Below, in pieces: positions 11,874 to 14,431 of a stretch of DNA of 64,000 nucleotides. A model generated the notes under the pieces. That model did no database searches, was not told the DNA's origin, and saw only the letters and a program-made list of their open reading frames with translations. The stretch is taken from positions 2,544,038 to 2,608,037 of the forward strand of contig NZ_JACHIR010000001.1 of assembly GCF_014203355.1 (NCBI RefSeq). The letters run 5' to 3'. This stretch comes from Kutzneria kofuensis (GTDB lineage: Bacteria; Actinomycetota; Actinomycetes; Mycobacteriales; Pseudonocardiaceae). A program made the translations under genes and the position numbers. How positions within the stretch are numbered: position 1 is the first letter of the stretch; each line of letters starts with the position of its first letter.

Positions 11874-12392
11874 TCAGCCGGTCAGCTGGGCGGCCAGCTC
11901 CGGGCGCAGCGCGTACACGAGCTGCGTCTGCATCCAGGTGAACAAGCCCGCGCTGCGCACCCGGTCGTCCTCGGACATCATGTCGCCGGTCTCCGACCGT
12001 TGCACCCACAGCAGCCGGGTCTGGCCGAGCACGCGGATCCAGTCGTCGATCGCCGACAGCTGGTAGCGCGCGGTGCCGTCGTCACCGATCGAGGCGAGCA
12101 CCCGCTGCGCCGCGCCGAACAGCTCCGCGTGCAGGACCCCGCCCCACCGCTCCTCGAACTCCTGGTTCATCGGCCCGTAGTCGGACACCGGCGGGAACAG
12201 CCGCCACAGCAGCGCGCGCTGCTCCCGGTCGAACCGCAGCCGCTCGCGCAGCTTGCGCTTGGGCTGCGCGTGGTCCAGGTACGCCACCAGTCGCCCGATG
12301 CTGTCACGCAACACCGGGATGGCGTTCTCGCTGAGCTTGATCAGCACCTGGTTCTCGCCGACGACCACGTCGAACTCGTAGTGGACGGTCAT
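11874..12392 (-). CDS. DUF2017-like protein, paralogue of the clpS-linked DUF2017
   Basis: The 172-residue protein starts TVHYEFDVVVGENQVLIKLSENAIPVLRDSI, followed by a DUF2017-like core: a LFPP segment, a long helix ending ELFGAAQRVLASI, then LSAIDDWIRVLGQTRLLWVQRSE and the C-terminal LFTWMQTQLVYAL. It aligns by eye with the canonical copy at 13590-14147 (LSAINDVRLALGTALDV...YHWLTWVQESLVNAV). It starts at ATG 12392 and overlaps the second clpS by four bases. So this operon holds two clpS-DUF2017 pairs. DUF2017 function is unknown; constant linkage to clpS suggests a role in adaptor control. Confidence 0.75.
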   Translation of the reverse strand: MTVHYEFDVVVGENQVLIKLSENAIPVLRDSIGRLVAYLDHAQPKRKLRERLRFDREQRALLWRLFPPVSDYGPMNQEFEERWGGVLHAELFGAAQRVLASIGDDGTARYQLSAIDDWIRVLGQTRLLWVQRSETGDMMSEDDRVRSAGLFTWMQTQLVYALRPELAAQLTG

Positions 12393-12628
12393 TCCCGATT
12401 CGCCTCGATCCTGGCGTGCAGGCCGAAGCCCACCAGCCGGGCCGCCACCGTCTCGGCGTCCTGCCGGGTCTCGGCCAGCCCCACCGTCGCCTGCCCCTCG
12501 CTGTCGACCTGCCTGGTCAGGGTCACCGCCTCGGCCAGCGGGACGCCGCACGCCCGGTTGATCACGTCGGCGACCAGCGGCACGCTGTTCAGGCAGTCGT
12601 TGAGCACGACAACTCGATAGACCGTCAT
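12389..12628 (-). CDS. Second, divergent ClpS-like adaptor
   Basis: The 79-residue protein is little more than a ClpS core: YRVVVLNDCLNSVPLVADVINRA...GLAETRQDAETVAARLVGFGLHARIEANRE. Asn10 and Asp11 match the conserved N-degron-binding ND pair. Other pocket residues differ from canonical ClpS: the position of E. coli Met62 is Thr38 and His66 is Asp42. The N-terminal extension that contacts Clp ATPase is very short. ATG 12628 overlaps the stop of the P1 peptidase (ATGA); an upstream GTG-like start would add six residues. It probably binds a different signal or acts as a decoy. Confidence 0.78.
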   Translation of the reverse strand: MTVYRVVVLNDCLNSVPLVADVINRACGVPLAEAVTLTRQVDSEGQATVGLAETRQDAETVAARLVGFGLHARIEANRE

Positions 12629-13593
12629 CTCTCCCCCTCCGGCCACGCGTCACGGTACGCCGGCACGCCCGCGACGGTGGTGGCCGCGAGAATGCCGTGC
12701 ACGATGGCCCGCGCGAACACCTGCGCGCCGGCCTCGCACACCCGGTCCAGCGCCATGCCCCGCACCCCCGACAACTCCTGCCGGCCCGTGGCCAGCGCGA
12801 AGATCGTGTCGCCGTCGTACATGGCGTGCGCCGGCCGGATGGCCCGGGCCAGCCCGTCGTGGGCGACGGCCGCGATCCGCTGGCACTCGGCCTTCGTCAG
12901 CACGGCATCGACCGCGACCACGCCGATCGTCGTGTTCAACGCCGACCGCTTCGGCTTGAGTTCCACGGCCGGTGCACCCGGGGCCGACGCGCCGAACTCG
13001 CCGTCGACCTCGTGATCAAGTGCCCAGGGAACGCCGGCGGGATTCACGGCCTCCCCCATGGCATTCACGGCGGCGATCGCGCCGACGGTCAGGCCGTCGA
13101 CCACCATGCTGGCGGTGCCGATGCCGCCCTTCAGCGACCCGCACCGGGCGCCGGTTCCCGCGCCGACGCAGCCCTGCTCGACCGGCCCATCTGAAGCCGC
13201 CTCACACGCGGCGTAACCGAAAGAGGCGTCGGGCCGGTTGCCCCAGTCGCCCAGCTTGAGGTCGAACAACACCGCCGACGGCACGACCGGCACCACCTCG
13301 TGCGGCAACTCCCCCACGCTGACGCCGTGGTTGCGCTCCGCCAGCCAACGCATCACGCCGTCGGCGGCCGCGAGCCCGTACGCACTGCCGCCGGTCAGGC
13401 ACACCCCGTGGATCTCCTGCACCAGCCGGGACGGCTCCAGGACGTCCGTCTCCCGCGTGCCCGGCGCCCCGCCGCGCTGATCCACGCCGGCGACCGCGCC
13501 GTCCGGCACCAGCACCACGGTCGTGCCGGTGGCCCAGCCGTCGCCCAGCCGCTGGTACTGGCCGACCAGCACGCCCGGCACGTCCGTGATCAC
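12625..13593 (-). CDS. P1-family (DmpA/BapA-type) Ntn-hydrolase peptidase
   Basis: The 322-residue product matches the self-processing P1/S58 aminopeptidase family (Rv1333 in M. tuberculosis). Visible parts are VTDVPGVLVGQ-like start, CLTGGSAYGLAAADGVMRWLAE, TGARCGSLKGGIGTASM and the cleavage region SALNTTIGVVAVDAV with Thr221/Thr222 as the likely new N-terminal nucleophile. Members release N-terminal D- or beta-amino acids or are of unknown substrate. GTG 13593 overlaps the DUF2017 stop by four bases and the gene overlaps clpS2 by four, so it is translationally coupled inside two adaptor pairs. Confidence 0.87.
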   Translation of the reverse strand: MITDVPGVLVGQYQRLGDGWATGTTVVLVPDGAVAGVDQRGGAPGTRETDVLEPSRLVQEIHGVCLTGGSAYGLAAADGVMRWLAERNHGVSVGELPHEVVPVVPSAVLFDLKLGDWGNRPDASFGYAACEAASDGPVEQGCVGAGTGARCGSLKGGIGTASMVVDGLTVGAIAAVNAMGEAVNPAGVPWALDHEVDGEFGASAPGAPAVELKPKRSALNTTIGVVAVDAVLTKAECQRIAAVAHDGLARAIRPAHAMYDGDTIFALATGRQELSGVRGMALDRVCEAGAQVFARAIVHGILAATTVAGVPAYRDAWPEGER

Positions 13594-14147
13594 GACGACA
13601 CCGCGTTCACCAGGCTCTCCTGCACCCAGGTCAGCCAGTGGTAGACGCCCAGGTGGGAGGAGCGGGGATCGTCCTCGGGCAGCTCGTCCGGCATGTCCTC
13701 GGTGACGTCCAGCGCCGTGCCCAGGGCCAGCCGCACGTCGTTGATCGCCGACAGCCAGGCGTCGGACTGCTCCACCGACAACACGATCTGGCCGCCGTCC
13801 GGCGGGCACGTGTCCATCACCACCTGCGCGACGCCCGTCTTCATCGCCAGCAGCTCCGGCTCGTGCAGACTGCGCAGCGCCGCCGCCGAGTCCAGGTCCT
13901 CCTTGGTCGGCTGGTCGTCGTCGAGGCGGTGGAAGTCCGGCAGCAGCCGGGACAGGATCGGGTCGTCCGGCGCCGTCGACGGGCCCACCTTGATGCCGGT
14001 CAGCTCGGCCAGCTCGTCCTCGGGCGCGTCCTGCTCGCGGGCCGCCAGCATGTCCAGCACCTGGCCGACCAGCCCGCGCAGGATCGCCGCCTCCTGCCGG
14101 TCCACCTCGGCGACGACCTGCTCGCCGCGCCGTCGCCAACCCCTCAC
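13590..14147 (-). CDS. DUF2017 protein paired with canonical ClpS
   Basis: The 185-residue acidic protein corresponds to Rv1332. Conserved blocks are an N-terminal helix (GWRRRGEQVVAEVDRQEAAILRGLVGQVLDML), PDDPILSRLLPDF, and LSVEQSDAWLSAINDVRLALGTALDV...HLGVYHWLTWVQESLVNAV. No catalytic motif is obvious. It overlaps clpS (4 bases) and the P1 peptidase (4 bases). A role as ClpS partner or N-degron pathway regulator is suggested only by gene linkage. Confidence 0.88.
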   Translation of the reverse strand: MRGWRRRGEQVVAEVDRQEAAILRGLVGQVLDMLAAREQDAPEDELAELTGIKVGPSTAPDDPILSRLLPDFHRLDDDQPTKEDLDSAAALRSLHEPELLAMKTGVAQVVMDTCPPDGGQIVLSVEQSDAWLSAINDVRLALGTALDVTEDMPDELPEDDPRSSHLGVYHWLTWVQESLVNAVSS

Positions 14148-14431
14148 GACTCGCGCTGCATGGTCGCCCAGAGGCCGGCGGCGTGCAGTTTCGCCACGTC
14201 CGACTCCACCTTCTCCTTGCTACCCGACGACACGATCGCCCGGCCCTTGTGGTGCACGTCGAGCATCAGCTTGGTGGCCTTCTCCCGGCTGTAGCCGAAG
14301 ATCTTCTGGAGCACGTACGTGACGTAGGACATCAGGTTGACCGGGTCGTTCCAGACGACTGTCAGCCACGGTTTGTCCTCGCTGCCGACCTGCTCAACCT
14401 CCGGCCGCTCCTGCTCGACGGGCGTGGTCAT
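14144..14431 (-). CDS. clpS: ClpS adaptor for ClpAP/ClpCP (N-degron pathway)
   Basis: The 95-residue protein has an acidic N-terminal extension and the ClpS core WLTVVWNDPVNLMSYVTYVLQKIFGYS...LMLDVHHKGRAIVSSGSKEKVESDVAKLHAAGL. Pocket residues match canonical ClpS: Asn28-Asp29 (E. coli Asn34-Asp35), Met56 (Met62) and His60 (His66). It should deliver proteins with bulky N-terminal residues to the Clp protease. ATG 14431 gives the normal length; upstream in-frame starts would add residues overlapping the pncB promoter. It begins the clpS-DUF2017-peptidase-clpS2-DUF2017-like series. Confidence 0.94.
   Translation of the reverse strand: MTTPVEQERPEVEQVGSEDKPWLTVVWNDPVNLMSYVTYVLQKIFGYSREKATKLMLDVHHKGRAIVSSGSKEKVESDVAKLHAAGLWATMQRES

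What the first reader, a model, noticed from the sequence alone, without database searches (positions are those of the whole stretch)
11874..14431. Two clpS-DUF2017 pairs flank a P1 peptidase in one operon
The order is clpS, DUF2017, P1 peptidase, clpS-like, DUF2017-like, all with 4-base overlaps, then mec-cysO-cysM. M. tuberculosis has only the first pair. Two adaptor/partner pairs around a self-processing peptidase suggest a branched N-degron pathway with its own regulator and peptidase. I am not aware of this arrangement being described.
Basis: partly seen in the sequence, partly recalled or inferred. Interest (0 to 1): 0.78.

Follow-up and report, generated by a model that had tools for sequence, protein, structure and literature searches.

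The report
Duplicated ClpS-DUF2017 protease adaptor pair
A soil bacterium carries two copies of a two-gene unit, a protease adaptor plus a partner of unknown function, and the way these genes are copied, moved, lost and sometimes fused together suggests strongly that the partner works with the adaptor.

Summary
All five genes lie at the stated coordinates, with the stated 4-base overlaps, and profile searches confirm the second ClpS and second DUF2017. The genome belongs with Kutzneria, Pseudonocardiaceae.

The second pair is not a local oddity. Of 200 family genomes, 54 have two or more ClpS. Of 65 extra ClpS hits annotated, 63 are followed directly by a DUF2017-like gene: 41 in the clpS1 operon, 22 elsewhere. 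Three of 24 genomes of one genus carry ClpS and DUF2017 as one reading frame. Of 22 genomes without detected ClpS, 20 lack DUF2017; in the other two it lies at a contig edge, where clpS would be cut off. All 25 controls with ClpS have it. In five loci of one genus exactly this pair is missing between pncB and mec-cysO-cysM.

So ClpS and DUF2017 very likely form one functional unit, perhaps adaptor and co-adaptor. No biochemistry or structure was obtained.

The parts
14144..14431 (-). clpS1, canonical ClpS adaptor (95 aa)
   Evidence: Pfam ClpS 87.9 bits; NCBIfam ClpS equivalog NF000668 150.9 bits, cut-off 86
13590..14147 (-). DUF2017-1, first partner; AosR-like (185 aa)
   Evidence: Pfam DUF2017 182.1 bits; NCBIfam AosR 227.3 bits, below its cut-off of 260
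12625..13593 (-). S58/P1-family peptidase between the pairs; judged a neighbour, not part of the unit
   Evidence: Pfam Peptidase_S58 236.5 bits
12389..12628 (-). clpS2, diverged ClpS paralogue (79 aa) with altered N-degron pocket
   Evidence: Pfam ClpS 41.6 bits; pocket residues V40, T62, D66 in E. coli numbering
11874..12392 (-). DUF2017-2, partner of clpS2 (172 aa, no cysteine)
   Evidence: Pfam DUF2017 41.8 bits; sequence
11399..11836 (-). mec, JAB metallopeptidase of the CysO pathway
   Evidence: Pfam Prok-JAB 97.1 bits; gene name recalled
11060..11338 (-). cysO, small sulfur-carrier protein
   Evidence: position and sequence; name from the known operon, recalled; no family search of this protein was made
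10105..11055 (-). cysM, cysteine synthase
   Evidence: position and sequence; relatives of all eight operon genes in 35 other loci; name recalled, no family search of this protein was made
14475..15758 (+). pncB-like gene, divergent; upstream boundary of the operon, conserved there in relatives
   Evidence: gene name recalled

Best explanation
ClpS and DUF2017 of actinobacteria are the two subunits of one adaptor unit for the Clp protease. Shown: the two genes stay adjacent, duplicate together, move together, are absent together and can fuse. Inferred: DUF2017 binds ClpS and acts as its co-adaptor, gating what ClpS hands to the ClpC unfoldase. The window's second pair is a diverged, fast-evolving paralogue of this unit. 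Its ClpS half keeps the family signature, but its N-degron pocket has largely changed, so its DUF2017 half probably supplies or controls substrate choice. The two units appear partly insulated: each ClpS correlates best with its own DUF2017. The likely unfoldase is the genome's strongest ClpC-like protein, an 868-aa frame (that it serves ClpS2 is inferred). The mec-cysO-cysM genes and the S58 peptidase are operon neighbours.
For: (1) Co-duplication: 63 of 65 extra ClpS hits have DUF2017 directly downstream; 40 of the 63 pairs can be read with a 4- or 1-base overlap; 40 of the 41 linked pairs lie between S58 and mec, the other at a contig end. Of the 44 loci fetched by ClpS hit alone, 42 have it, two of them by the fused frame L125 and the partial ClpS of L127. 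(2) Mobility: 22 pairs lie outside the operon; among 24 unlinked loci no neighbour family recurs in 3 or more genera apart from two loose clusters. (3) Fusion in 3 of 24 genomes of genus g8, 74-80% nucleotide identity to each other, no stop at the junction; the C-terminal half matches second-type DUF2017 by profile comparison, probability 99.2, E 2.7e-19. (4) Co-absence: 20 of 22 ClpS-less genomes lack DUF2017 over cut-off, against 0 of 25 controls. All 11 of those 20 that are at least 99% complete keep mec. The pair alone is missing in 5 of 5 g231 loci fetched. (5) The 29 best-scoring phylum-wide DUF2017 loci besides the window all have clpS directly upstream. (6) Partial distance correlation: ClpS2-DUF2017-2 0.47, ClpS1-DUF2017-1 0.57, ClpS2-DUF2017-1 -0.08. 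(7) A tandem pair in a distant genome, G582, 62% complete. (8) Median dN/dS is about 0.40 for both members of operon pair 2, against 0.10 and 0.13 for pair 1.
Against: No binding, proteolysis or structure data were obtained. Adjacent genes can be lost or copied together by one deletion or duplication without any contact between their products. ClpS1-DUF2017-2 also correlates (0.29, p 0.001) and so does DUF2017-2-CysO (0.39, p 0.001), so insulation is not clean. Pfam does not see DUF2017 in the two fused proteins submitted; my own profile and hhalign do, while hhalign against first-type DUF2017 gives only probability 2.5. Residues recalled as ClpA-docking (E79, K84) are not kept in the window's ClpS2 (Q and V), and K84 is D in 38 of 39 ClpS1, so ClpC docking by ClpS2 is unproven. 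The high dN/dS also fits weakened function. Extra ClpS L118 has no DUF2017 beside it, nor does the weak hit L129. Of the 20 genomes lacking both families, 8, all under 98% complete, also gave no mec, and one, G886, has a sub-threshold DUF2017 hit of 20.4 bits.
Confidence: 0.5

Rival explanations
1. DUF2017 is an AosR-like transcription regulator and ClpS controls it, for example by delivering it to ClpC for degradation or by holding it. The second pair would be a second regulatory switch.
For: NCBIfam's model for the family is named 'oxidative stress transcriptional regulator AosR'. The pair sits upstream of cysteine-synthesis genes. Many second copies in relatives do have cysteines: 29 of 63 segments have two or more. 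That AosR acts on these genes in M. tuberculosis is recalled; the paper was not held.
Against: DUF2017-1 is below the AosR cut-off (227.3 against 260) and DUF2017-2 gives no AosR hit. Window DUF2017-1 has one cysteine and DUF2017-2 none; 22 of 39 first-copy and 27 of 29 phylum-wide matched segments have none, so a disulfide switch within one chain cannot be general. Fusion of a regulator to the adaptor that degrades it would be odd.
Confidence: 0.22
2. One reading: ClpS2 is a true N-degron adaptor with altered residue preference, giving a branched N-degron pathway.
For: ClpS2 is a ClpS by profile. The aspartate at position 35 is kept in 64 of 65 extra ClpS, and H66 in 27 of 65. Paralogous ClpS with other preferences exist in cyanobacteria (PMC7966870, passages).
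Against: M40 and M62 are mostly lost in the extra copies, H66 in over half, and all three are changed in the window. The pocket varies among the extra copies, whereas a fixed degron preference should conserve it.
Confidence: 0.12
3. ClpS2 is a decoy or anti-adaptor that occupies ClpC or ties up DUF2017, so damping the first unit.
For: Loss of pocket residues with retention of the ClpS signature. HspQ and MgtC are described as anti-adaptors of the ClpS system (PMC7966870, passages).
Against: A pure decoy would not need its own co-inherited DUF2017; non-cognate ClpS2-DUF2017-1 shows no excess correlation.
Confidence: 0.1
4. The second pair is a decaying duplicate without function.
For: Elevated dN/dS, about 0.4, with single comparisons above 1, and patchy presence: 54 of 200 family genomes have two or more ClpS.
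Against: Median dN/dS stays below 1, and pairs are found in 19 of the 46 genera sampled, moved, triplicated and fused.
Confidence: 0.06

Closest known systems
Actinobacterial operon clpS - helical protein - JAB - ubiquitin-like - cysteine synthase (Iyer et al. 2006, PMC1779556, row 4d; passages read)
   Same: Same operon and the first ClpS-DUF2017 pair (that the 'helical protein' is DUF2017 is inferred from its place).
   Different: One pair only in the passages read; no second pair, relocation, fusion or co-loss is described there.
Paralogous ClpS adaptors: cyanobacterial ClpS1/ClpS2 (PMC7966870 and PMC6274998, passages) and Leptospira ClpS1/ClpS2 (PMC12493166, start of abstract in a search listing)
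   Same: A second ClpS in one cell, in cyanobacteria with other residue preferences.
   Different: In what I saw no partner gene travels with the second ClpS; here the ClpS-DUF2017 pair is the unit that was copied.
Chloroplast ClpF-ClpS1 binary adaptor (PMC7966870, passages)
   Same: Working model: ClpS plus a co-adaptor delivering clients to ClpC.
   Different: ClpF has UVR and YccV domains; the window's DUF2017 proteins match only the DUF2017 model in Pfam. An analogue, not a homologue.
AosR (Rv1332) of M. tuberculosis (recalled; NCBIfam NF051854)
   Same: DUF2017 protein downstream of clpS.
   Different: Window DUF2017-1 is below the model's cut-off and DUF2017-2 does not match it.

Membership tests
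ClpS (PF02617) | Profile match over the curated cut-off | tested here: met
   clpS2 41.6 bits against 23; 23 of 23 members of A2 match ClpS at E <= 0.01
ClpS (PF02617) | Canonical N-degron pocket residues M40, M62, H66 (roles recalled) | tested here: not met
   Window ClpS2 has V, T, D; ClpS1 keeps all three in 39 of 39
ClpS (PF02617) | Binding to ClpC/ClpA N-domain and N-degron delivery | not testable with these tools
   Needs purified proteins
DUF2017 (PF09438) | Profile match over the curated cut-off | tested here: met
   DUF2017-2 41.8 bits against 25; 23 of 23 members of A1 match at E <= 0.01; second-type and first-type profiles align by hhalign, probability 96.9, E 2e-10
AosR equivalog (NF051854) | Score over NCBI's equivalog cut-off of 260 | tested here: not met
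   DUF2017-1 227.3 bits; DUF2017-2 no hit
AosR equivalog (NF051854) | Redox switch by intramolecular disulfide (recalled), so at least two cysteines | tested here: not met
   In the window DUF2017-1 has one Cys, DUF2017-2 none
Clp two-part adaptor (ClpS plus co-adaptor, as ClpF-ClpS1) | Partner inherited and lost with ClpS | tested here: met
   with the exceptions named in the report
Clp two-part adaptor (ClpS plus co-adaptor, as ClpF-ClpS1) | Physical complex with ClpS and ClpC | not tested
   Structure prediction was never accepted; no complex modelling was possible

The most novel reading that the evidence does not exclude
ClpS in actinobacteria is not a lone N-degron adaptor but one subunit of an obligate ClpS-DUF2017 adaptor. 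One bacterial family has multiplied this unit into fast-evolving, insulated paralogous adaptors, up to three in one operon and sometimes one polypeptide, whose old N-degron groove has been re-used to hold DUF2017 or new clients. This would be a modular adaptor family for ClpC beyond the N-degron rule.
Probability: 0.33. Interest if true: 0.76.

Novelty: new variant of a known kind. Interest (0 to 1): 0.62.

Why it matters
DUF2017 occurs in 58 of 119 sampled genomes of the phylum, and no paper in the held library uses its name. Tying it to ClpS gives it a testable role and suggests that ClpS assays in actinobacteria may have lacked a partner. ClpC1 is bound by antitubercular compounds (PMC10030653, start of abstract in a search listing), so what its adaptors need is of wide interest. 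The natural fusion proteins are ready-made material for solving the complex.

Tried and rejected
N-degron branch: weakened by the pocket residues. Defence system: no PADLOC match for four proteins. A shared neighbour that would name a substrate of the unlinked pairs: none beyond two loose clusters. Third DUF2017 of the genome (L004): no ClpS beside it in the 3.5 kb held, very long branch, left aside. Solved structure of a DUF2017 relative: none at E <= 1 for DUF2017-1, and only hits at E 0.14 and above for the second-type profile. Sequencing error as the cause of the fusion: rejected, since three genomes of 74-80% nucleotide identity share it, although one of them has an in-frame ATG and another a GTG at the junction, so separate translation of the second half is not excluded in those two. 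A single origin of all second copies: the tree puts its 63 second-type rows on one side of a branch with support of only 41 and warns of long branches, so it is not claimed. First collection scan with P0005 found nothing; the second with A3 gave the three named Kutzneria.

Rows left out: second ClpS hits that were not fetched or annotated are those of G051 (Pfam only, not found by A2), G161:C70 (25.6 bits), the third Pfam hit of G065, G340 and G782. The DUF2017 tree took only rows over 40 bits, so L090 and L094 are not in it.
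Full report
WHAT IS THERE. On the minus strand the order is clpS1, DUF2017-1, S58/P1 peptidase, clpS2, DUF2017-2, mec, cysO, cysM, with pncB divergent at the 5' side. The first four junctions overlap by 4 bases. Both ClpS and both DUF2017 pass Pfam's cut-offs. The second copies look old: the two ClpS give no BLASTP alignment and the two DUF2017 share 32% over 79 columns.

HOW COMMON. In 200 genomes of the family 54 have two or more ClpS at E <= 0.01 (counted by hand from its list; for one of them, G051, profile A2 did not find the second). A profile of second-type ClpS (A2) finds one ClpS each in 309 of 318 genomes of the order outside the family, two in 1 and none in 8; inside the family 20 of 79 have two or more. 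In the class sample 280 of 294 genomes outside the family have one, 1 has two (a 68%-complete assembly) and 13 none. Extra ClpS are thus almost confined to this family among those sampled. In the window's genus 6 of 7 sampled genomes, the window's included, have DUF2017-2 or a relative, and three have two copies plus three ClpS, so the pair is triplicated there.

THE PAIR IS THE UNIT. I fetched 64 loci from 59 other genomes (recount) and annotated them and the window with profiles. Of 65 extra ClpS hits 63 are directly followed on the same strand by a DUF2017-like gene, 41 pairs within the clpS1 operon and 22 elsewhere; the two without one are L118, in a broken operon, and L129, a weak hit. 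The first 20 loci are biased: 19 were chosen by a DUF2017-2 hit and one, L071, as an operon without it. Of the 44 chosen by ClpS hit alone, 40 have a complete pair, and L125 (fused) and L127 (partial ClpS match) make 42 with DUF2017 next to ClpS. Among 24 unlinked loci no neighbour family recurs in three or more genera except two loose clusters of methyltransferase-like and dehydrogenase-like proteins (names recalled).

FUSION. In L125 both domains lie in one open frame. A search of 24 genomes of that genus found the full-length fusion in three. They share 74-80% of nucleotides and have no stop at the junction. One has no in-frame ATG, GTG or TTG at the junction, one has a GTG and one an ATG there. 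Pfam recognises the ClpS half of the two that I submitted, but not the DUF2017 half. Between that half and the second-type DUF2017 profile hhalign gives probability 99.2 and E 2.7e-19, though only probability 2.5 against the first-type profile.

CO-ABSENCE. I took all 22 genomes in which searches found no ClpS, and 25 genomes with ClpS as controls, chosen by me mostly from the same families. DUF2017 is over cut-off in 25 of 25 controls and in 2 of 22 ClpS-less genomes (Fisher p 2e-11, relatedness ignored); one more, G886, has a hit of 20.4 bits, below the cut-off of 25. In both exceptions DUF2017 starts at base 6 or 55 of a contig, just where an upstream clpS would be cut off. Of the 20 that lack both, mec was found in 12 and not in 8. 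The 12 are all 11 genomes at least 99% complete (8 of genus g231, G304, G336, G346) and G011, a 74%-complete assembly whose S58-mec contig starts inside S58, so its clpS may simply be missing. In five g231 loci that were fetched, pncB and mec-cysO-cysM stand as in relatives and exactly clpS-DUF2017 is missing. Families f73 and f15 suggest at least two independent losses; the f15 loci were not fetched. Phylum-wide, the 29 best-scoring DUF2017 loci besides the window (of 60 matches in 58 of 119 genomes) all have clpS directly upstream. A distant genome, G582 (62% complete), has a tandem ClpS-like, DUF2017, clpS, DUF2017 array.

DIVERGENCE. At E. coli positions 40, 62 and 66 ClpS1 has M, M and H in 39 of 39; the extra ClpS keep them in 6, 8 and 27 of 65. 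D35 is kept in 64 and E82 in 65 of 65 (pocket roles recalled). Within-genus median dN/dS is 0.404 for ClpS2 and 0.407 for DUF2017-2 in the operon, against 0.103 and 0.132 for the first pair and 0.066 for cysM; single comparisons reach 2.05 and 1.30 for the second pair. Controlling for cysM, mec and S58 distances over 36 operons, cognate correlations are 0.47 (pair 2) and 0.57 (pair 1). Non-cognate ones are -0.08 (ClpS2-DUF2017-1) and 0.29 (ClpS1-DUF2017-2, p 0.001); ClpS2 and ClpS1 give 0.14 (p 0.04), and CysO correlates with DUF2017-2 at 0.39 and with ClpS2 at 0.20. Insulation is therefore likely but not clean.

PHYLOGENY. In the DUF2017 tree the 63 second-type rows over 40 bits fall on one side of a branch with weak support (41), apart from the first copies, and the program warns of long branches. 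In the ClpS tree the 39 ClpS1 form one side of a branch with support 99. One old duplication with later moves and losses fits, but is not proven.

HOW IT PROBABLY WORKS. Shown: ClpS and DUF2017 are copied, moved, absent and fused together. Inferred: DUF2017 binds ClpS and sets what is handed to ClpC, as ClpF is proposed to do with ClpS1 in chloroplasts (PMC7966870, passages). For pair 2 the changed pocket points to clients chosen otherwise than by the usual N-terminal residue. The rival with most weight is a regulator (AosR-like) under ClpS control. Against it stand the sub-threshold AosR score, the few cysteines of the window's proteins and of first copies and the fusions; for it, 29 of 63 second copies in relatives do have two or more cysteines.

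KNOWN AND NEW. The one-pair operon is known (PMC1779556, passages), and so are paralogous ClpS (PMC7966870, passages). The second pair, its spread, the fusion and the co-absence were not seen in the listings of six searches of the held library; the library lacks most subscription journals, and the AosR paper is recalled only.

Noticed in passing
G000:C1:4742374-4742886 (locus L004, 1474-2046 +): A third, very diverged DUF2017 protein of this genome (55.4 bits) with no ClpS beside it in the 3.5 kb held and a very long branch in the tree.
   Followed up: partly
window 9273-9988 (+): Two adjacent, similar small reading frames with the shared stretch LPLLYAEDAVVV, converging on cysM; they look like a tandem duplication of an SnoaL/NTF2-like protein (name recalled).
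   Followed up: no
G057:C1:1747899-1748291, G109:C5:339952-340344, G019:C1:1153976-1154368: Some genomes of the same genus carry an extra large frame (954-994 aa) with two Clp_N repeats, perhaps ClpI-like (PMC10149685, passages); none such is among the rows listed for the window's genome in a capped list.
   Followed up: no
Genus g231 (8 genomes, family f73): All eight sampled genomes lack ClpS; none has DUF2017 over cut-off and all keep mec, so ClpS delivery seems absent in a whole genus.
   Followed up: partly
G647:C23:329786-331270: Two ClpS-DUF2017 pairs in tandem in a genome of genus g8; whether they are near the clpS1 operon was not checked.
   Followed up: no
L114 (G028): About 1.4 kb between clpS1 and DUF2017-1, by far the largest such gap among the 39 family operons annotated.
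   Followed up: no
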